Of a stretch of DNA of 11,216 nt, positions 117 to 11,187 are shown in pieces (position 1 is the first letter of the stretch; every line of letters begins with the position of its first letter). The DNA lies in contig JAFTTD010000380.1 in the NCBI GenBank assembly GCA_017466965.1, positions 1-11,216 of the forward strand. Direction: 5' to 3'. Source of the DNA: Bacteroidaceae bacterium (GTDB taxonomy: Bacteria > Bacteroidota > Bacteroidia > Bacteroidales > Bacteroidaceae). The notes beneath the pieces are model-generated. The model made no database searches. It had not been told where the DNA came from and was given only the letters and a program-made list of their open reading frames with translations. The position numbers and the translations under genes were made by a program.

Positions 117-998
117 TTATTTTGGTGAGATAATAATTTCTCTTGTATCTACACTCATCTTCTTGTCGCGTTTACGACATTCAAAAAGCCATTTTTGAAA
201 ATTGTCAAAGTCAAGTTCCCTCGGAAGCTCCAAAGAACCTTCCTTGACGTTTATGTGATGATCCACTGCTTTTGTAAATGGCTTTGGAGAATAGATGATA
301 TATAATTTGTTCATATCTGCAGTTTGTCCGCTGCATGTCAGAACATATTCATCTGTTATTGATTTTAAATCTTTTGGAGCCTTATCTTCAGAAAAGAAAA
401 TGTATTCTTCTCCATGTTCAACAGGCATTTGTCCATCGGGGTCTCCTTGATAAGGGAGCAAACAGAATGCTTCGCTTTCATCTACGAGATATACTGCAAG
501 ATAACCGTCTTTAGGTGATTGAAAATGTAAGAAAATATCATCACCCGCGTTGAAATGATCATCTTCAGATTTTAATGAAGTATTATTCTTTAGGATTTTG
601 GCTTCAAATTCAATAGGTGCGTTGATGATTTCTCTTGCCAATCCTTTAACTCTTGCAGTAATAATTATCATACCGTCAGCAAAGACCGGTTGAGAAAATT
701 CTTCTTTTTGTGTACCTATCCATTCCCCTTTTACATCACTTCCGCCGTATGAAGTTATTTTAGATGATGTTTTTTCGTTTTCCTTCACAATAACACTTGC
801 TGTTGATGAAGTCACGATTGTACCAAATTCTTCAGCAATAGCCTGGATTTTGGCACGTTCCAAGGCTATTCGTTTAGCTTCTGCTACTGAGACATTTTCA
901 GACCCCCTGTAAGTATATTCACCTTCAACAGTAGCTTCTCTTTGGCAGAAAGCTGCCAAAGATAATGCTAAAGCTATCAATGTTAATGTTTTACGCAT
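117..998 (-). CDS. Exported DUF4384-like protein with N-terminal LPP20/FlgT-like region
   Basis: 293 residues from ATG 998. The first 18 or so residues form a signal peptide (MRKTLTLIALALSLAAF), so the product is predicted to be periplasmic or surface-exposed. Residues about 22-120 (EGEYTYRG, then an Ala-rich helix with AEAKRIALERAKIQAIAEEFG) resemble the LPP20/FlgT-N type of fold. Residues about 132-265 look like DUF4384: a strand-rich segment with SPKDGYLAVYLVDE and then LLPYQGDPDGQ near residue 180, the usual 'G-Y-hydrophobic ... L-x-P' pattern. An alternative start at 1019 (MKFIYHNM) overlaps the upstream stop codon as TAATG and would add seven residues; I prefer 998 because it gives a normal-length signal peptide. 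A Cys stands at the end of the signal peptide (AAFC then Gln) where relatives usually have Ala; Phe before it does not fit a lipobox. DUF4384 is commonly found fused to or beside caspase-like domains, which fits this locus. The family assignment is by eye. Confidence 0.7.
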   Translation of the reverse strand: MRKTLTLIALALSLAAFCQREATVEGEYTYRGSENVSVAEAKRIALERAKIQAIAEEFGTIVTSSTASVIVKENEKTSSKITSYGGSDVKGEWIGTQKEEFSQPVFADGMIIITARVKGLAREIINAPIEFEAKILKNNTSLKSEDDHFNAGDDIFLHFQSPKDGYLAVYLVDESEAFCLLPYQGDPDGQMPVEHGEEYIFFSEDKAPKDLKSITDEYVLTCSGQTADMNKLYIIYSPKPFTKAVDHHINVKEGSLELPRELDFDNFQKWLFECRKRDKKMSVDTREIIISPK

Positions 999-1018
999 AT
1001 TATGATAAATAAATTTCA

Positions 1019-1699
1019 TTATTTGACCCAAAGTACGTTGTCAAGTTCCTTGCTGAGCTCTTTGCCTTCTTTGATAAGTTCTTTAGTAAGCATATCTCTA
1101 ACTTGCTTCTTTGCAAGGTCACCGCTGTAAGCAAGACGCACCAATACTTCTTTCTTTCCGCCAGGGAGGTCTCTGTAAGCTTCTACAACTGTTAGAGTGC
1201 GGCCTATGCTCTGAGAAATGAGAGCTTTGTTTGCCATAACTGTTTTTGTTACAGAAGCAGCTTCGCCTTCGCCAAGTTGTGCGTTAGAGACATTGCTCTC
1301 AATAAGTGAAGTTGTTTCTTGCTGTATTCTTGAAGCAAGGTCTTGCATAGCGAGATTTGAAGCTTCTATTTTTGCTCCATCATAGTTTGAACCAGAGCTT
1401 GATGCTGAGCCAAGAATGAATTTTGGATATAAGTCATCTGTATATTCATTTTGCATTTTGTACGAGCGGTCAAGTTGCTTTTCCAATGGGAGAGCACCTG
1501 GCATAGCTTTCCAACCTTCTTTTGAAAGGCGTTTAGCTTCCTTGCGTGCATCCTTAGACGCTTTTACGTCAAGCTGCTTTGCTGAATACTTGAGTATTTC
1601 TTTACGTTCTTTGTAGATTTCCTTTGCAGTCTTTTCCTGTGCAAATGTTGTTGTGCTTGCTAAAAATGCAGCTACAGCAACCAATAAAAGTTTCTTCAT
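1019..1699 (-). CDS. Small exported LPP20-like protein
   Basis: 226 residues from ATG 1699 (MKKLLLVAVAAF), which gives a clean signal peptide with likely cleavage after TTTFA and before Gln21. A more upstream in-frame ATG at 1726 would put nine polar residues before it and is less likely. Residues 22-75 are highly charged and helical (many KE, RK and DARKEAKRL). Residues about 85-200 carry a YPKFILGSASSSGSNY segment followed by an Ala-rich helix, EASNLAMQDLASRIQQ, and a final strand/helix with EVLVRLAYS; this order resembles LPP20-family lipoproteins, although no lipobox Cys is present. It is first in a likely operon: its own promoter lies near 1785 and its stop overlaps a possible start of the next gene (TAATG at 1021-1017). 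Similarity to LPP20 is a judgement from pattern, and no catalytic motif is visible, so a structural or binding role is more likely than an enzymatic one. Confidence 0.7.
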   Translation of the reverse strand: MKKLLLVAVAAFLASTTTFAQEKTAKEIYKERKEILKYSAKQLDVKASKDARKEAKRLSKEGWKAMPGALPLEKQLDRSYKMQNEYTDDLYPKFILGSASSSGSNYDGAKIEASNLAMQDLASRIQQETTSLIESNVSNAQLGEGEAASVTKTVMANKALISQSIGRTLTVVEAYRDLPGGKKEVLVRLAYSGDLAKKQVRDMLTKELIKEGKELSKELDNVLWVK

Positions 1700-1784
1700 A
1701 AAATTAAAATTTAAATGATTATACATAGTTATTATCTGATTCCCTGACTAAAAAACAATCATCCCCGCAGTCTTTGTGATGTTG

Positions 1785-1834: not shown

Positions 1835-4384
1835 TTATTTTTCTCTATCAAGCTGCCATTTTTCCCATACACCTGCGAGATTTGCTGAACTTGTGACAGT
1901 TGGGTTCTGAGGCTTGCTGTTTATCTTAAGGCTGTTCTGCGATACATTTTTTGTGATGTATTCAGCAAGTTCTTCGTATGATGCACGTCCTTTTGTTTCC
2001 TGAAGTTTCTTTAAGAGGAAGTATGTGAACATTCCGTGCTTTTGGTTTTCGTATGGATATGCTGTTTCATCTCCGGTACATGCTGTGAACACTACCATAT
2101 TCCCTTTCGGAGCTTCCTTCTTTGCCTTGATAGCAACACCACGTGCAGCGGTATCCATCAAATCTCCGTCTCTTTGAGCACCGCTAAAGCAGGCATCAAT
2201 GAACACTGTAACCGATTTTGATGGGAGTTCGCCAAGTTGTGCATAAAGATTAGATAGTTTGTAACATGTGCTAAGAGACTTAGGGTATGCGTCAACTGGC
2301 AATAAATAAGCTTCACCTGTATTCTGGTCTGGAAGTCCATGACCTGAGTAGTAAACGATGACTCTTGCTTCACCGGCACGTGATGCAATAAAGTTCTTCA
2401 CCATGTCTATTTTGGCCGCCATGTCACCGAATGATGCGTTTTCCTGCATAAATATATTAGTGCCAGGAATACCGAGTGCTTTAATGCAATAGTTGAAGAA
2501 TGAGCTACCGTCATTCTTTGCGTATGCAACAGCTCCTGTGTTCTTGTAGTCTTCATTGCAAATGATAAGTGCGCAAGTGTTGTCGTTGACTCTGCTTGTT
2601 TCAGGTATTTTCAGGTCAACGTCAGATTCTCCAACTACGACAGTTGTAGTCACATCTTTTCCGCCTTTGTTGATAAGTCCTCCAAGCGATGCAATGTCGC
2701 CTGCTTCAACATCATCGAACTGCACAGTAACTTTTGCTTGTCCGTAGCTCAGGTCTTTTCTTGCATCATAGATGTATGACGAACCATTACCAAGTGTGAA
2801 TATTACTTCAGACAGCACCATCTTTCCATCTTTGTCAATGGCAAATTTCGGATTGTCGGTTGTAACGCTGTGCCACTGCTGCTGGAACTTTCTTGCTTCA
2901 TCGTTGGCTCTTGGAACCTGAAGGTAGATGTCACCTTGTTTTGTCTGAATCTTGTATGTTTCGTGGTCGGCGTCGTATGGCTTAAGTGTAATGTTCTTCA
3001 AGTCATATCTGTTACCGTATTTTGCTATAAATTCCTCTTCAAGTGTTTTGCGCTTTGCTACAATTCGTTCTGCGCGTGACTCTGAGTTTACGCGTTTCTT
3101 AAATTCTTCTGTAGTTTCGTATGTGTCTTTTTTTGCCCATTTTTCAATGTCTTCGTTGATAAGCGGTACAGCCCATTCATTGAAATTAGGGATGGTCATA
3201 TCTTGGGTATCGCTACTTGCGAGCGTGAAATCTGTATTGTTCATCTGTGCTTTTACGCGGTTAGCCTGACTTTCGTTGCCCAAGTTCATGTATGCGTCAG
3301 CAAGTGCAGTAAGATATTTTGTGTTGTTCTTGACCGAAGCGGCAATTTTTTCTAACAAAGGCACAGCAAGATTAAGGTTCTTATGTGCTTCATCGCGCAG
3401 TCCCTTTATCTTTTGGCCTGCTTCGCTCTTGTTCTTCTCGTTAGGCAGATTCTCTGCAAGGCGGTTGCTTTCATTTATGAATGTTCCACCTATATTATAA
3501 TAGCACAGAGCTTGTTTCTCGATAAGCTGCAAACTGTTAGGGTCAGCCTGTAGTAATGTGTTGTATATGTTCAATGCGTCAAGATACATTCCTTCAGAAT
3601 CAAATATGATTGCCTTTCTGAACAGAAGTTCCGGGTCGTTAGGAGTGATAGCGATTGCTCTGTCAAGATATTCTTTGGCTTTAGCCGTGTTGTTGCTTCT
3701 TGAATATGTGTTTATAGCCAAACGCAGCATCATGTTGTTGTTTGGGTAGTTCATGAGGCCTTCTTCAAGAATTTTTTCTTCTCTGTCATACTCTTCAAGG
3801 TATTCCAATGCCTGAGCCATGAATGAGTAGCATGTTTCCTGTCTGTGCTTCTCGCCAAGGTCCAAATATTCCTGGAAGAATGTTACTGCTTCTTCCAGCT
3901 CCATGGCGTTGTATGCCTCTGTTGCAGCAAACAGAACCAATGTAGGATAGTTGGAGCTTCTCATGAATCGTTCTCCTGCGAACATTGGCATGTGTGGTAT
4001 GTTCAGGAAGCACTTTATGTATTCGTAAGCAGTCTTTTGGTCATTGGCTTGCGAATAGTGTATTCCTGCTTCTTCCATGAATGGGTGAATCTTGCGTATT
4101 TTTTCTTTAATTGCAGCTTTCCTTGTTTCATCAGCAGGTTCTATGCTTTTGAAGTAGTTCTTGAATGTTTCCATAAGTCCGCTATACATCAGGTTCTTGT
4201 CTGATGCAGGATTGGTTTGCATTCTGAAGAACTCAAGGAATCCGTTTTCTGCCGCATTGAATATAGAGTCTTCAGGAGAAATTCGGATACTGTCCGTTAT
4301 TTCCTCTGACGAAGTCGTAATGTCTTGTGCGGAAGCGTAATAAGTTGTAAGTCCAAGAAAAAATGCTATGATTATACGTTTCAT
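1835..4384 (-). CDS. Exported TPR protein with C-terminal caspase-like (C14) peptidase domain
   Basis: 849 residues from ATG 4384. This start gives a signal peptide MKRIIIAFFLGLTTYYASA cut before Gln20; the frame stays open back to 4510, but that stretch is untranslatable-looking A/T leader. The order is signal peptide (1-19); helical TPR-like repeats (about 150-375, for example AYEYIK, TPNDPELLFRKA, ALADAYMNLGNES); a middle module (about 405-541) that recurs in the neighbouring OMP; a strand-rich linker; and a caspase-hemoglobinase fold domain (about 600-825). The catalytic dyad is visible: His682 in VIVYYSGHG and Cys732 in VFIDACFSG, 50 residues apart as usual for C14. The Asp two residues before Cys732 is the metacaspase/paracaspase-type arrangement, which in characterised members goes with cleavage after Arg or Lys; the specificity here is inferred. 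The segment after the Cys (about 748-760) is rich in Arg and Lys and could be an autocleavage linker. It is predicted to act outside the cytoplasm, with TPRs for partner binding. The substrate is unknown. Confidence 0.9.
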   Translation of the reverse strand: MKRIIIAFFLGLTTYYASAQDITTSSEEITDSIRISPEDSIFNAAENGFLEFFRMQTNPASDKNLMYSGLMETFKNYFKSIEPADETRKAAIKEKIRKIHPFMEEAGIHYSQANDQKTAYEYIKCFLNIPHMPMFAGERFMRSSNYPTLVLFAATEAYNAMELEEAVTFFQEYLDLGEKHRQETCYSFMAQALEYLEEYDREEKILEEGLMNYPNNNMMLRLAINTYSRSNNTAKAKEYLDRAIAITPNDPELLFRKAIIFDSEGMYLDALNIYNTLLQADPNSLQLIEKQALCYYNIGGTFINESNRLAENLPNEKNKSEAGQKIKGLRDEAHKNLNLAVPLLEKIAASVKNNTKYLTALADAYMNLGNESQANRVKAQMNNTDFTLASSDTQDMTIPNFNEWAVPLINEDIEKWAKKDTYETTEEFKKRVNSESRAERIVAKRKTLEEEFIAKYGNRYDLKNITLKPYDADHETYKIQTKQGDIYLQVPRANDEARKFQQQWHSVTTDNPKFAIDKDGKMVLSEVIFTLGNGSSYIYDARKDLSYGQAKVTVQFDDVEAGDIASLGGLINKGGKDVTTTVVVGESDVDLKIPETSRVNDNTCALIICNEDYKNTGAVAYAKNDGSSFFNYCIKALGIPGTNIFMQENASFGDMAAKIDMVKNFIASRAGEARVIVYYSGHGLPDQNTGEAYLLPVDAYPKSLSTCYKLSNLYAQLGELPSKSVTVFIDACFSGAQRDGDLMDTAARGVAIKAKKEAPKGNMVVFTACTGDETAYPYENQKHGMFTYFLLKKLQETKGRASYEELAEYITKNVSQNSLKINSKPQNPTVTSSANLAGVWEKWQLDREK

Positions 4385-4497
4385 GTCCGATATAGATATA
4401 AAATGATAAAATAGATATTTACTTATTATAATTAGAGTTGTGGTTGTCCCCTTTAAATAAATAATGTATAAATATGTATTTGTATTGTTAAATGAAT

Positions 4498-4535
4498 GCC
4501 GTCTTCTCACTCGTCTTAAAGGGTGAGAAGACGGC
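4498..4535 (-). terminator. Strong hairpin between the OMP gene and the caspase gene
   Basis: A perfect 13-bp inverted repeat (GTGAGAAGACGGC on the plus strand at 4523-4535 and its complement at 4498-4510) encloses a 12-base loop, starting 21 bases beyond the OMP stop codon. On the minus strand it is followed by ATTCATTTAACAATA, so the U-tract is poor. It most likely ends or protects the 3' end of the OMP transcript and implies that the caspase gene either has its own promoter in 4385-4497 or receives only partial read-through. No exact TAnnTTTG element is visible in that stretch. Confidence 0.65.
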
Positions 4536-4555
4536 AGCGGTTTTATGGATTGTTA

Positions 4556-6334
4556 TTAGAATGCGTCGTAGAAGAGGAAGTCAACCTTCACACGGCGGTG
4601 CTCTGAACCAACTTCTGGAGAAACTTCAATGTTGTATTCGTTAGTAGTCTTCATCTGGTTCAAGCCTTTGAGGTTCTTGTAAATGTAGTCCTTAACGCTG
4701 ACAGCACGAACAAGAGAGAGCTGCTCGTTGTTTGTGATGCCGTCCTTCTTTGTAACTGTAAGCTTCTGCTTCTTTCCGTTCACTGTCACATCCTGAGCGT
4801 TGATGTCGCCATACTTGCCGTTGTAGCTGATAACGCCGTGGATAGGCATTGCGTCTGCTGTTCCTGTGAATGAAATCTTGCAAGCCTTGCCAGCCTTAAC
4901 ATACTGAGCGAAGTCTGTTTCAAATGCTTTCTTGATGATGTTCATCATTGCTACAGAAGCCTTTGAACCTTCAGCGTTGTATTTACCTGGAGCGAAGTCG
5001 TCTGTTGCGCTGAATCCGTCCTTAACAGTGTATTTGTAGCTGATCTTGTAGTCAATCTTGTTGTTAGCAGCTGGTATAGCCTCAGTTGAAACAGATATAG
5101 TTGTGTTTTCAGAGAGGATGTCGTCATCCATAGCCTTCTGAACAGCGTCAGTCTTAATCTTCTCAAGTCTCATGCTGTTAGCGATGTTCTCATGAACAAC
5201 TGAAAGTGGAAGGAATCCTTCTGAAGAACTTGCAAGTTCAACATCCTTTCCTGCAAGGTTGTTATAAACGTATGTCTTTGAGTTGTTGCCGTTGAGGACC
5301 TCTGTATAGAGCACTTCGAACTTGTCGTTCTTATTAAGTCCATATACTGTGTTGCTGAACTTAATGTCGTCTGCAGTCTTGAATGCGCTTACGTCTTCCT
5401 TAGGCACGTTGAGTGTGATTGAAGGCATTGTGTTGAAATCGACAGTGAGGAGTTCCTTGCCTGTGTTGTACTTTCCGAGTGTAACCTGTGATTCGCCGAT
5501 TTTGTTACCTGCCATTTCTGTAGAAACTTCTTTCTCGAACTGAAGACGGAGAGAAGCGATAGAGTCAGAGTTTGTACGGAGCTGGTATGCTTCCTTTGAC
5601 TCGCCTTCAAGGCGCTTCATCCAGTTGTTGATACGGCTCTGAACACCCTGCTGCATCTGCTCGTAGAGTGAGAGAGGCTTAGCTGGAACTGGCTCAACAT
5701 AGTCTGGAGTCTTTGAATAACCAAAGTTATAAGCAAGACCTACCTTCAATGAACCCATCCAGTCGTCTGAATTGCTCAGCTTGCCGTTGAATTTGTCTGA
5801 CATGTTGTCAAGGTCAGCTTCCAATGAAACGCTGAGAGCCTTAGCCAATTTATATTCAGCTATTGCACCTACGCGGAAGTTGTGTCCCCATATTTCGTCA
5901 AGATTGCTTGGTGCCCAATCTTTGTCCCATGAGTAGTTCAAGCCGACACCACCGAGGAGGTAAACGTTGAAACGGTTGTTTCTGTTCTTTGAGAATAGGT
6001 TTGAAAGATTCAGGAGCAAGTCAACATTTGTGTTGATGTATTTCATGTCCTTTTCGCCTATCTTCTCACAGATAGTGTGAAGGTTTGCTCCTGTAACACC
6101 GATACGTGCACCAACTACAGAACTGAAGTTGTATCCTAAATTCACTCCTAAAGATGGAGAAAGAAGGTGCTCGAAACAACCAGGAGTGAACAATTTTTGT
6201 GCGCCTCCCTGTACTTGAACGTAGCCATAAGGGAAGAAATTCTTGCCTTTTTCTGAACTGTCAGTCTGTGCGTTTACTGCTATAGGAGCAAGCAACATTG
6301 ACAGTCCAAGCAATGCTTTTGTAGAAATTTTCAT
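4556..6334 (-). CDS. Outer-membrane beta-barrel protein with OmpA-like C-terminal domain
   Basis: 592 residues from ATG 6334. Residues 1-22 are a signal peptide ending VNA before Gln23. Residues about 25-207 have the alternating strand pattern of a small outer-membrane barrel (GYVQVQGG, SLGVNLGYNF, VYLLGGVGLNYSW, GSLKVGLAYNFGYS). After a proline-rich hinge (YVEPVPAKP) comes a middle module (about 228-359) that matches one in the caspase protein. The C-terminal region (about 480-592) resembles an OmpA peptidoglycan-binding domain: GTAD with Asp494, then NNEQLSLVRAVSVKDY with Arg543, the Asp and Arg that contact diaminopimelate in known OmpA domains. They are 49 residues apart here instead of about 15, so an insertion is present. 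The expected role is to link the outer membrane to the cell wall and perhaps to present the middle module in the periplasm. A strong promoter precedes it and a hairpin follows it. Peptidoglycan binding is inferred. Confidence 0.8.
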   Translation of the reverse strand: MKISTKALLGLSMLLAPIAVNAQTDSSEKGKNFFPYGYVQVQGGAQKLFTPGCFEHLLSPSLGVNLGYNFSSVVGARIGVTGANLHTICEKIGEKDMKYINTNVDLLLNLSNLFSKNRNNRFNVYLLGGVGLNYSWDKDWAPSNLDEIWGHNFRVGAIAEYKLAKALSVSLEADLDNMSDKFNGKLSNSDDWMGSLKVGLAYNFGYSKTPDYVEPVPAKPLSLYEQMQQGVQSRINNWMKRLEGESKEAYQLRTNSDSIASLRLQFEKEVSTEMAGNKIGESQVTLGKYNTGKELLTVDFNTMPSITLNVPKEDVSAFKTADDIKFSNTVYGLNKNDKFEVLYTEVLNGNNSKTYVYNNLAGKDVELASSSEGFLPLSVVHENIANSMRLEKIKTDAVQKAMDDDILSENTTISVSTEAIPAANNKIDYKISYKYTVKDGFSATDDFAPGKYNAEGSKASVAMMNIIKKAFETDFAQYVKAGKACKISFTGTADAMPIHGVISYNGKYGDINAQDVTVNGKKQKLTVTKKDGITNNEQLSLVRAVSVKDYIYKNLKGLNQMKTTNEYNIEVSPEVGSEHRRVKVDFLFYDAF

Positions 6335-8442: not shown

Positions 8443-11187
8443 ATGAAACACAGATTACTAACTTTATGCGTTGCAATGCTTGCAAGTGTAGGCATGTTCG
8501 CACAATGGACAAAGCCGGAAGTTAAGGGCACTGATTTCGTTGTAGGAGATACTCTTTATCTCTACAATGTTGAAGCTGCTGCGTTCTTCCGCGGTTTAGG
8601 TGAAGGCTCAGGCCCATATTGGGGCTCTCGCGCCGGTGTGGCAACTGAAGGTTGCGACCTCGTAGTGTTCCAGCCTGCTTTGTACGATTTAGCTACAGGC
8701 ACAAAGGACGCAATTGAATTCATGGAAGAATGGGACAACACTACTCTTCTTTTCCAAAACTACAGCAGCCATATTACAAAACCTCGTTGGGACGAAGTAT
8801 GGTTCGACTTGTATGACTTTGTTACAATCTGGACAGACCGTAACGCAAATGCAGACAACAATGTGAACTTCTTCTGGAACGTCACTAAGAACGATGAAGG
8901 CTGTTACAGCATCAGCGTATCTCCAAAGGCTTGGGAGCTTGCTGACGAAGTGTTCTTCGACACATTGCACGTTGTTAAGGGTGGCGAACGTCTTGGCGTT
9001 GATCTTGCAAACGCAGATCTTCCTGCTGTTCTTGAAGGATATGCAAGCGAGAATATCGGTTATAACTGGAAGTTCGTGTCAAAGGAGGAATTCGAATCTA
9101 TCGACATGAACCAGTATGCTCTTTATGCTGCTGCTATGAGCCTCAAGGCTTTCATTGACGAGAGCAAGGCTGCATATCCAACAGGTGATTTCTCTGCTGC
9201 AGAAGCAGTATATAACAACACTGCAAGCACATTGGAAGAACTTCAGGCTGCAAAGGACATCGTTAAGCAGGTTATTCTTGACATTCAGGCAAACGAGGCA
9301 AGTCCAACAGACCCTAAGGACATGAGTGCCGCTATTGAGAATGCTACATTCGATGTTATCGGTGACTTCAAGGGCTGGAGCGGTACTGCTTTCGCTGCTG
9401 GCGGAACAACATCTACTTGCGCTGAGCATTACAACAAGTCAAGTTTCAATACTTATCAGGACCTTGCAGGTCTTCCTCTCGGAATCTACAAGGTAAGCGT
9501 GAAAGGCTTCTATCGTGCAGGTTCAATCTCTAACGACTGGGATACAAAGGACAATGTTAACTATCGCCATGCTAAGCTCTATGCGCGTTCTGCTTCAGAC
9601 TCGCTCTATACTAACATCCCTTCACTTTCTGCAGCAGGAACAGAAGGCAATGTAGTAGGCGGTGCAGACAATGGCCATGGATTCTTCGTTCCTAACACAA
9701 TGGCTGACTTCACTGCATTCAAGGAAGCAGGTTATGTAAGTGATGTAAGCGTGCTTATTCCTGTAACAGACAATACACTTCGTATTGGCGTAGTGAAGAA
9801 CTCACACATTGATACAGACTGGTGTATCGTTGACGACTTCACGCTCCTTTACTATGGAAACTCAGACGAGGCATACATGGCTTGGAGAGACCAGGTTCTT
9901 GAAAACGTACCTGATATAGATGCTATCATCGGTGAAAGTGCTTATACAGAGTCATATAAGACAGCTGCAGAACAGGCTATTGAGACTGCTCTTACATGCA
10001 CAGACCGTAACCTTATCCCTGATGCTATCAAGGCTATTAACCCTGCAGTAGAAGCTCTTCAGGCAAATATCATCGCTTGGCAGGAGTGGCAGGAGAAAGT
10101 GGCAGAAGTTGACGCTTATTTTGCAGAGAATGACGACCTTGACGGAGATTCTGTATATTACATGACAGACTACCTCATGGACGAGTCTGCTCCAGGCGAG
10201 AACTATCCTAACGGCGGTGCTATTTATATCGCAGAAAACCTTGAGCTTACTACAGAACAGCTTCTTGAAGAAGTTGCAAATGTGGACAGATGGTTCCAGT
10301 CTGCTATCAAGAACGGTATGCGTGAGGGCAGCAACGTTTCTCACCTCCTTGTTAACCCTTCGTTCAAGGAAGGATGGACAGGATGGACAAGAGGCAGCGG
10401 TACATACAACACAGGCGGTCTTGACATCTGCAAGGTAGTTGAAGTTTACGGTGCGGACGATGGTTCTACAGTGGAAGTAAGTCAGACAGTGAACAATGTT
10501 ACTCCTGGTATCTATTCAATCTCTGTTCAGGCGTTCGAACGTCCTGCAGGAAACGGTTCTTACTATGGTGACGAAGAACCAAAGGTTTACCTCTTCATGA
10601 ATGATTTTGAAACTCCGGTACAGAATATCGTTAAGGACGCTATGCCTGAAGATTTGGCTGAAGATAAGGTTAATTGTATGATTGGTGATGGCGGTGGCGG
10701 TTGGCCTAACGACTATAATGTAGCAGGTTACGGATGGGTTCCAAATTCAGTTGACGGTGCATCGTACGCATTCGCATACGGCCGTTATGAGCAGAAGTGC
10801 TATGGTATCGTTGGTGAAGATGGCGTAATGAAGATTGGTCTTACTTCACACGGACAGTCTGTACACTGGGTGCTTTGGGCAAACTTCAAGCTCATTTATG
10901 AAGGAAAGAGTGATGAGGCTATCGCTTCAATCCTTGAAAGTACACTTGAGCAGGTTAACACATATCTTGAAAACAACATAGATATGATGACTGAGGTTGT
11001 GGCTTTGAAGGTTCAGGGTGCTGTTGAGGGAGCACAGGATGCTATTGGTGTGGATTATGAAACTATGTATAATGCTCTCATGGCGCTTAATGCAGTAAAT
11101 GCTGAGGCTAAGCTCAATGTTGAGGCTATGACTAAGCTGGGCGAAGTGGTTACAACACTTGAAGAAGTTTATTATGAATTTGTATAG
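8443..11187 (+). CDS. Large exported modular protein with two carbohydrate-binding-like domains
   Basis: 914 residues from ATG 8443. The signal peptide MKHRLLTLCVAMLASVGMFA is cut before Gln21. Residues 21-212 form a strand-rich N-terminal domain rich in Trp and Tyr that ends in YNWKFVSKEEFE, a pattern I know from Bacteroidales exported proteins of unknown function. Then two related beta-sandwich domains (about 295-475 and 633-825) alternate with helical spacers (about 218-295, 475-630 and 825-914; Ala-, Glu- and Leu-rich, FIVAR-like). The duplication shows as LGIYKVSVKGFYRAG versus PGIYSISVQAFERPAG and as YYGNSDEA versus YEGKSDEA. The sandwich domains look like galactose-binding or CBM-type folds; no catalytic motif of a glycosidase or protease is visible. 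The C-terminus is helical with no type IX secretion sorting domain and no LPXTG-like anchor. An envelope or secreted glycan- or adhesin-type binding role is an inference. The gene stands alone as far as the window shows. Confidence 0.75.
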   Translation: MKHRLLTLCVAMLASVGMFAQWTKPEVKGTDFVVGDTLYLYNVEAAAFFRGLGEGSGPYWGSRAGVATEGCDLVVFQPALYDLATGTKDAIEFMEEWDNTTLLFQNYSSHITKPRWDEVWFDLYDFVTIWTDRNANADNNVNFFWNVTKNDEGCYSISVSPKAWELADEVFFDTLHVVKGGERLGVDLANADLPAVLEGYASENIGYNWKFVSKEEFESIDMNQYALYAAAMSLKAFIDESKAAYPTGDFSAAEAVYNNTASTLEELQAAKDIVKQVILDIQANEASPTDPKDMSAAIENATFDVIGDFKGWSGTAFAAGGTTSTCAEHYNKSSFNTYQDLAGLPLGIYKVSVKGFYRAGSISNDWDTKDNVNYRHAKLYARSASDSLYTNIPSLSAAGTEGNVVGGADNGHGFFVPNTMADFTAFKEAGYVSDVSVLIPVTDNTLRIGVVKNSHIDTDWCIVDDFTLLYYGNSDEAYMAWRDQVLENVPDIDAIIGESAYTESYKTAAEQAIETALTCTDRNLIPDAIKAINPAVEALQANIIAWQEWQEKVAEVDAYFAENDDLDGDSVYYMTDYLMDESAPGENYPNGGAIYIAENLELTTEQLLEEVANVDRWFQSAIKNGMREGSNVSHLLVNPSFKEGWTGWTRGSGTYNTGGLDICKVVEVYGADDGSTVEVSQTVNNVTPGIYSISVQAFERPAGNGSYYGDEEPKVYLFMNDFETPVQNIVKDAMPEDLAEDKVNCMIGDGGGGWPNDYNVAGYGWVPNSVDGASYAFAYGRYEQKCYGIVGEDGVMKIGLTSHGQSVHWVLWANFKLIYEGKSDEAIASILESTLEQVNTYLENNIDMMTEVVALKVQGAVEGAQDAIGVDYETMYNALMALNAVNAEAKLNVEAMTKLGEVVTTLEEVYYEFV

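What the first reader, a model, noticed from the sequence alone, without database searches (positions are those of the whole stretch)
2760..5654. A shared module in the caspase protein and its neighbouring outer-membrane protein
The middle of the caspase protein (about 405-541) and of the OMP (about 228-359) carry the same ordered motifs: IEKWAKK / INNWMKR (Trp416, Trp238); NITLKPY / QVTLGKY (Thr466, Thr285); IYLQVPRANDEARKF / ITLNVPKEDVSAFKT (Val490, Val310); and GNGSSYIYDA / GNNSKTYVYNN (Tyr537, Tyr355). Spacings Trp-Thr-Val-Tyr are 50-24-47 and 47-25-45. Such agreement in order and distance points to a common domain, although the rest of each protein is unrelated. I know no name for this module. 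It could be a common docking surface that brings a periplasmic peptidase to the outer membrane, or both may bind the same third partner.
Basis: partly seen in the sequence, partly recalled or inferred. Interest (0 to 1): 0.8.

Follow-up and report, generated by a model that had tools for sequence, protein, structure and literature searches.

The report
Shared domain in bacterial caspase operon
Two neighbouring genes of a gut-type bacterium, one for a caspase-like protease with an export signal and one for an outer-membrane protein with a cell-wall-binding type of end, carry the same previously unnamed protein domain, which may couple the protease to the cell wall.

Summary
Caspase residues 397-560 and OMP residues 219-375 are one homologous domain: pairwise BLASTP E 4e-5; separately built profiles match at probability 99.1, E 9.9e-19; both AlphaFold2 models show the same order of elements. 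No Pfam or NCBIfam model covers it significantly. The OMP is OmpA-type: its C-terminus folds like MotB/OmpA wall-binding domains. The pair is a fixed gene unit: 49 of 49 TPR-module-caspase genes with enough upstream DNA (window included) directly follow a module-OmpA gene. Exchangeable parts precede the domain (barrel, WD40, TPR, LRR, WG, MORN). Three loci fuse the OmpA-like domain directly to a caspase; the two complete fusions lack the module. This fits a coupling adaptor, like the EADs of bacterial conflict systems. Against obligate module pairing: three paired caspases lack the module, 0 of 34 caspases of the other kind have an adjacent OmpA-type gene, and co-variation of the modules is no stronger than of other domains. 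Shared domain: near certain; coupling by module contact: inferred, about 0.4.

The parts
4556..6334 (-). OmpA-type partner gene (592 aa): signal-peptide-like start, beta-barrel, module, OmpA-like domain
   Evidence: ORF; PF13505 above cut-off, OmpA below it
5717..6277 (-). beta-barrel domain (residues 20-206)
   Evidence: PF13505 E 4.7e-8 at 34-204; 2.2e-9 on the N-terminal part alone
5210..5680 (-). shared module, OMP copy (residues 219-375); Trp238, Glu245, Arg253 invariant
   Evidence: profile match 156.8 bits, residues 219-377; caspase-side-only profile 1.5e-14; AlphaFold2 model
4559..5209 (-). OmpA-like, probably peptidoglycan-binding domain (residues 376-592), with an LSxxRAxxVxxxI motif
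1835..4384 (-). TPR-module-caspase gene with signal-peptide-like start (849 aa from the ATG)
   Evidence: ORF; Pfam
3215..4087 (-). TPR region (residues 100-390, bounds of my own profile)
   Evidence: several TPR profiles inside it, e.g. TPR_14 5e-11
2705..3196 (-). shared module, caspase copy (residues 397-560); Trp416, Glu423, Arg431 invariant
   Evidence: profile match 168.4 bits; OMP-only profile 1.3e-14; AlphaFold2 model pLDDT 92.9
1886..2575 (-). caspase (C14) catalytic domain, residues 604-833; His682 and Cys732
   Evidence: PF00656 E 3e-22; both residues invariant in the 10-row alignment
1019..1726 (-). third gene (235 aa), a family of its own that recurs near these caspases
   Evidence: no Pfam hit for the window protein; relatives within 6 kb of 21 of 49 pairs
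117..1031 (-). fourth gene (304 aa), DUF4384-type
   Evidence: PF14326 3.6e-5, 24.2 bits, below the cut-off of 27, in the window; E <= 0.01 in 20 of 24 members scanned, window included; within 6 kb of 36 of 49 pairs

Best explanation
The module is an exported, non-enzymatic coupling domain of about 160 residues that sits between an exchangeable sensor or scaffold part and an output part. In this operon one copy sits in an OmpA-type protein held at the cell wall, the other in a TPR-caspase exported to the periplasm. Most likely the two proteins form one envelope complex: the OmpA-type partner senses through its barrel (or, in relatives, a WD40-type propeller) and fixes the complex to peptidoglycan, and the module, by contact with its counterpart or self-association, recruits or clusters the caspase so that it is activated or released on envelope damage. 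Shown: common ancestry of the two modules, fixed gene pairing, OmpA-like predicted fold, conserved His/Cys, natural OmpA-caspase fusions. Inferred: export of the mature proteins, lack of enzymatic activity of the module, peptidoglycan binding, physical contact of the modules, the trigger and the substrates.
For: Homology of the modules and same predicted topology: caspase H7-22 H31-37 H40-65 E72-77 E82-87 E90-95 H99-108 E114-122 E128-136 E142-146; OMP H14-29 H38-44 H47-66 E75-81 E86-91 E97-100 H103-108 E115-124 E130-139 E144-149, plus a short H69-72. Gene pairing: 49 of 49, gaps -85 to 301 bp counted to the first Met of the caspase frame. The eleventh genome holds an OmpA-caspase fusion; a search with its OmpA-like part matched in 10 of 393 genomes (itself included): 3 fusions, 6 pairs, 1 OmpA-like gene with no caspase in the 12 kb read. 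The two complete fusions show no significant module match even without filters (best E 0.07), as expected if the module joins what a fusion joins covalently. Segatella copri and Xylanibacter rodentium genomes hold exactly two copies, the pair; the other two genomes searched hold three and four. OmpA-like fold and a relaxed LSxxRA-type motif in 54 of 54 OMP-type genes. Catalytic motifs: strict pattern in 87 of 93 module-caspases, the other six keep GH and DAC with changed neighbours. N-terminal exchange.
Against: Three OMP-type genes with the module stand beside TPR-caspases that lack it (L128, L144, L184; a CARDB domain instead in L128). Of 42 module-caspases without this TPR region, 34 have at least 1.5 kb upstream and 0 of 34 an adjacent OMP-type gene, so a partner module is not needed in general. 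Several genomes have a single strong module. The partial correlation module-module, 0.19 (p 0.001), is no higher than for other cross-pairs: 0.37, 0.19 and -0.05. Adjacent copies are not each other's closest kin: OMP and caspase modules form two separate sides of the tree, 100/100. Fusions without the module may simply be another lineage; only two are complete. The 49 pairs are related by descent, so they are not independent. No complex was modelled.
Confidence: 0.42

Rival explanations
1. The module works within its own chain: it transmits the state of the N-terminal repeat domain to whatever follows (caspase or OmpA-like domain) or holds the caspase inactive. The two copies share descent and need not touch.
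For: Mostly placed after a repeat or barrel part and before an output domain; 0 of 34 caspases of the non-TPR kind with enough flank have an adjacent OMP-type gene; co-variation of the modules is nothing special.
Against: Does not explain why the second copy sits in the adjacent gene in 49 of 49 cases or why two of four genomes hold just those two copies. Some WD40-module proteins have no output domain after the module.
Confidence: 0.3
2. Both modules bind the same third partner, for instance the DUF4384-type protein, the 235-aa protein or a wall or membrane component.
For: DUF4384-type genes lie within 6 kb of 36 of 49 TPR pairs, and one is in the locus of 19 of 42 other module-caspases; DUF4384 is an accessory domain of cyanobacterial orthocaspases (passages).
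Against: DUF4384-type genes also lie near caspases without a module (L072, L128, L168, L181, L184), so they may follow the caspase and not the module.
Confidence: 0.16
3. The OMP module is a substrate: the caspase cuts the partner at or beside the module, releasing the barrel or propeller from the wall anchor.
For: Operon pairing and conserved catalytic motifs allow it.
Against: No cleavage site was looked for here, and the caspase carries the same module itself.
Confidence: 0.08
4. The likeness is chance or low-complexity convergence.
For: Only 25% identity in the window pair.
Against: 0 of 5000 shuffles reach the score; probability 99.1 profile match and no reversed-sequence hits; same predicted topology.
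Confidence: 0.01

Closest known systems
Effector-associated domains (EADs) and the EAD-coupling principle (Kaur et al. 2020, PMC7159879: section 30 read, other passages by term)
   Same: Small domain without enzymatic features, one copy in a core component and another in an effector, often in adjacent genes; the same effector may be fused directly to the core component in other cases. The paper also reports OmpA and other wall-associating domains, typically preceded by a TM segment, in its iSTAND systems (passage).
   Different: EADs are described as N- or C-terminal in NTP-dependent conflict systems and as tending to be closest kin when adjacent; this module is internal in both window proteins, these have signal-peptide-like starts, and adjacent copies are not closest kin.
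PorE / PG1058 of the type IX secretion system (PMC5053529, abstract and passages read)
   Same: Periplasmic protein with propeller and OmpA_C-like wall-binding domain, close to the WD40-module-OmpA relatives of the window's OMP.
   Different: PorE is described as TPR-propeller-CRD-OmpA; no module and no caspase partner appear in what I read.
Prokaryotic metacaspases in operons with OmpA domains (Asplund-Samuelsson et al. 2012, PMC3501461, section 13 and passages read)
   Same: OmpA domain reported in 14 metacaspase operons; WD40 and TPR are among the commonest partner domains of metacaspases.
   Different: Neither the shared module nor the Bacteroidales pair is described in the parts read.
EACC1-associated caspases (NCBIfam NF047832)
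   Same: The caspase domain hits this model (E 8.7e-16, 58 bits).
   Different: Well below its cut-off of 140 bits.
KTSC (PF13619)
   Same: The strand part of the module has a KTSC-like pattern (Tyr-Asp, then Val-Pro): PF13619 at E 0.0019 in L031 (18.3 bits), 3 of 25 OMP-type segments at E up to 1; the module profile meets a KTSC chain at E 0.27 and a 73-aa uncharacterised chain (4rgi) at E 0.0038, both over the same strands.
   Different: All below cut-off or weak, and the helical part is not covered; a lead, not a membership.

Membership tests
Caspase / peptidase C14 | C14 profile above cut-off | tested here: met
   PF00656 79.9 bits, cut-off 21.4
Caspase / peptidase C14 | His-Cys dyad in GHG and DAC motifs | tested here: met
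   His682, Cys732 invariant in 10 rows; motifs
Caspase / peptidase C14 | proteolytic activity | not testable with these tools
   no assay
OmpA family | OmpA/MotB-like C-terminal fold | tested here: met
OmpA family | Pfam OmpA profile above cut-off | tested here: not met
   14.7 bits against 27.2; 7 of 25 segments at E up to 1, best 0.0046
OmpA family | LSx2RAx2Vx3L motif (as quoted in PMC5053529) | tested here: met
   window LSLVRAVSVKDYI (last position Ile); relaxed pattern in 54 of 54
OmpA family | peptidoglycan binding | not testable with these tools
   inference from fold and motif
EAD | copies in a core component and in an effector, often adjacent genes | tested here: met
   that the OMP is the core component is my reading
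EAD | N- or C-terminal position | tested here: not met
   internal in both window proteins
EAD | adjacent copies tend to be closest to each other | tested here: not met
   two separate sides of the tree, 100/100
EAD | homotypic interaction | not testable with these tools
   proposed, not shown, for EADs in the section read
EAD | NTP-dependent core (MoxR-vWA, iSTAND, GAP1) | tested here: inconclusive
   none among the six window genes scanned; other loci not surveyed for it
PorE-type T9SS component | TPR-propeller-CRD-OmpA order | tested here: not met
   barrel or propeller, module, OmpA
Known domain family for the module | Pfam or NCBIfam hit over the module above cut-off | tested here: not met
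   none in the proteins scanned; KTSC below cut-off in one
Known fold for the module | clear match to a solved structure | tested here: inconclusive

The most novel reading that the evidence does not exclude
A Bacteroidales-specific envelope surveillance system, outside the cytoplasm, in which a new alpha+beta adaptor domain couples exported caspases to a peptidoglycan-anchored OmpA-type sensor, an extracytoplasmic counterpart of death-fold/EAD coupling, with exchangeable barrel, WD40, TPR, LRR, WG or MORN parts and DUF4384 as an accessory.
Probability: 0.35. Interest if true: 0.85.

Novelty: new variant of a known kind. Interest (0 to 1): 0.64.

Why it matters
An exported caspase tied through a shared new domain to a wall-binding OmpA-type protein would give bacteria a caspase switch in the envelope, where the adaptor-coupled caspase systems I know of (recalled, and PMC7159879 in part) are mainly described as intracellular conflict systems. 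It also defines a domain, without a model in Pfam or NCBIfam, that marks a patchily distributed set of caspases in Bacteroidales (32 of 247 genomes sampled at E <= 0.001, of which 19 at 1e-10 or better), and it makes the role of metacaspase-OmpA operons, noted in 2012, directly testable.

Tried and rejected
Chance similarity: rejected. Gene conversion or a recent duplication between the two neighbours: rejected, since OMP and caspase modules split cleanly. Module-specific coevolution: looked for; all four domains co-vary (r 0.71-0.84), and the module-module partial correlation (0.19, p 0.001) is no higher than the controls. Obligate module-module pairing: rejected as a general rule. Known fold for the module: no clear match, which does not show a new fold. 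Sequence search of solved chains: best whole-sequence E 7.7e-6 to a plant polyketide synthase chain (6gw3_D), but its two stretches score only E 0.25 and 0.42 each and are the same segment twice in that chain, and the normal chain scores 0.12, so I take it as spurious. Known defence system: of six proteins scanned against PADLOC, the caspases of the window and of L048 hit a general caspase model, the OMP-type relative in L031 a HEAT-ARM model (9.6e-7, over its propeller), and the window's OMP and two small proteins nothing. Stand-alone module proteins: the profile search gave 3 proteins, two with an OmpA domain and one unannotated, on contigs of about 1-1.7 kb, so fragments are likely. DUF4852 kinship: weak matches in two remote proteins, not pursued. 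Literature: ten searches listed no title or abstract opening about the module or a Bacteroidales caspase-OmpA pair; several lists were capped (15 of 254, 15 of 37, 15 of 1,906, 8 of 44, 12 of 1,101), not all were aimed at the module, and the library holds open-licence papers only.

Rows dropped: A2 holds 22 of the 30 OMP proteins (the window's and 29 found). One search counts modules over 20 bits and at least 110 residues. One search set aside L011 and L032 (contig edge; L011 shows an OmpA-like remnant upstream); one search left out the short loci L080-L124; one search covers 39 of 42 N-termini (three with 60 residues or less left out). The export check is a crude rule of mine, passed by 48 of 51 TPR-caspases, 32 of 42 other module-caspases, 48 of 54 OMP-type genes and 4 of 6 others.

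Full report
Observation. The window encodes, on the minus strand, an OmpA-type outer-membrane protein (4556-6334, 592 aa) followed by a TPR-caspase (1835-4384, 849 aa), a 235-aa protein (1019-1726) and a DUF4384-type protein (117-1031). BLASTP aligns 409-545 of the caspase with 231-365 of the OMP, E 4e-5. Shuffled sequences never reach the observed score in 5000 trials.

Common domain. Relatives were gathered for each protein (9 and 29 proteins) and aligned (10 rows, and 22 of 30). Profile comparison of the two middle regions gives probability 91.9, E 7e-7; region pairs without both modules stay at 8 or less. A scan of GTDB genome contigs found 492 stretches encoding relatives of the caspase; the best 80 were kept, 79 loci. 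In these loci a script counted 130 module copies: 50 in OMP-type genes, 49 in TPR-caspases, 29 in other caspases, 2 elsewhere. Profiles built separately from 39 caspase-side and 25 OMP modules match with probability 99.1, E 9.9e-19; the caspase-side profile finds 54 OMP-type ORFs (E 2.9e-20 to 1.4e-3), the OMP profile finds 92 of 93 caspase-type ORFs (E 3.6e-21 to 0.066), and neither finds any of 9817 reversed ORFs. Trp, Glu and Arg (416, 423, 431 in the caspase; 238, 245, 253 in the OMP) are invariant in 64 modules.

Architecture. The module is preceded by exchangeable parts. Of 54 OMP-type N-termini (window included) 34 match WD40-type propeller profiles and 18 the OMP beta-barrel profile. 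Of 39 N-termini of module-caspases without the TPR region, 16 match WG repeats, 10 BspA-type LRR, 2 WD40; one has MORN repeats. Four WD40-module proteins without a caspase in the same chain (L112, L113, L117, L118) and one module protein with a Fib_succ_major domain (L110) exist. Of 93 module-caspases 87 fit the strict His and Cys motifs, and the other six keep GH and DAC.

Gene pairing. Of 51 TPR-module-caspase genes (window included), 49 have at least 1.5 kb upstream, and 49 of these 49 directly follow an OMP-type gene on the same strand, gaps -85 to 301 bp by first Met; two at contig edges were set aside. Searching from the OMP side in 151 genomes gave 11 genomes with matches; 10 of 10 complete OMP-type genes precede a TPR-module-caspase. 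Of four genomes searched, Segatella copri and Xylanibacter rodentium carry exactly two module copies, the pair; Bacteroides timonensis has three, and the MAG of L001 four, one of them marginal. DUF4384-type genes are within 6 kb of 36 of 49 pairs, the 235-aa family of 21 of 49. At E up to 0.001 the module was found in 32 of 247 Bacteroidales genomes, 19 of them at 1e-10 or better, and in 6 of 198 Bacteroidota genomes, five of these with weak matches only; both samples include the starting genome.

Fusions. The eleventh genome has one gene in which the OmpA-like domain is fused to a caspase (L168). A search with that OmpA-like part matched in 10 of 393 genomes of the same order: three fusions (L168, L181, L182), six split pairs (L125, L128, L183, L184, L185, L187), and one OmpA-like gene with no caspase in the 12 kb read (L186). 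The two complete fusions have no significant module match at full sensitivity; L182 is cut by the contig end. Of the six split pairs four carry the module on both proteins and two only on the OMP.

Reading. Where wall anchor and caspase are separate chains, both usually carry the module; where they are one chain, it is missing in the two complete cases. This is the logic of coupling adaptors proposed for EADs (PMC7159879, section 30 read). The module nevertheless fails two stated EAD features, terminal position and closest kinship of adjacent copies, so I call it EAD-like in working and not an EAD. That paper also notes wall-associating OmpA domains in its iSTAND systems (passage), so a wall link in such systems is not new in itself.

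Against this. In L128, L144 and L184 the caspase beside a module-bearing OMP has no module, with a CARDB domain in L128. Of 42 module-caspases of the other kind, 34 have 1.5 kb or more upstream and none of the 34 an adjacent OMP-type gene; two of 42 share a locus with one. A partial Mantel test gives module-module 0.19, no more than the controls. Thus the domain is certain in practice, the two-protein unit very likely, and direct module contact only plausible.

Prior work. OmpA domains in 14 metacaspase operons were reported in 2012 (PMC3501461, section 13 and passages read). DUF4384 is listed as an accessory domain of cyanobacterial orthocaspases (PMC7475262 and PMC8283722, passages). PMC8195603 was seen in passages only. 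Ten searches of the open-licence library, some with capped lists, showed no title or abstract opening on the module or this pair.

Noticed in passing
L168:3219-5510, L181:3540-5747, L182:2826-4220: Natural fusions of an OmpA-like wall-binding domain with a caspase domain; L181 is followed at once by a DUF4384-type gene and begins with a lipobox-like sequence; L182 is cut by the contig end.
   Followed up: partly
L128:9674-12439, L144:4986-7748, L184:4759-7551: TPR-caspases of the same operon type without the module; in L128 a CARDB domain lies between TPR and caspase, and L184 shows no YxGHG motif although DACFSG is there.
   Followed up: partly
L008, L046, L053: Two OMP-type module genes in the same locus before one caspase; in L046 and L053 one has a barrel match and the other does not.
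   Followed up: no
L001: Record titled Roseburia sp. (a Firmicute) carries this Bacteroidales operon; probably a mislabelled or mis-binned MAG.
   Followed up: no
L110:1291-2871, L139:8395-9975 (same gene): Module protein with a C-terminal Fib_succ_major domain and no caspase domain.
   Followed up: no
54 OMP-type N-termini (alignment A7): Nine of 54 also match the PorZ N-terminal propeller profile of the type IX secretion system.
   Followed up: no
module residues of the first strands, e.g. within window 2705-3196: KTSC-like pattern in the strand part of the module, possibly a distant kinship.
   Followed up: partly
window 8443-11187: 914-aa protein with a signal-peptide-like start and no Pfam family above cut-off (only a weak MukF middle-domain hit).
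   Followed up: no
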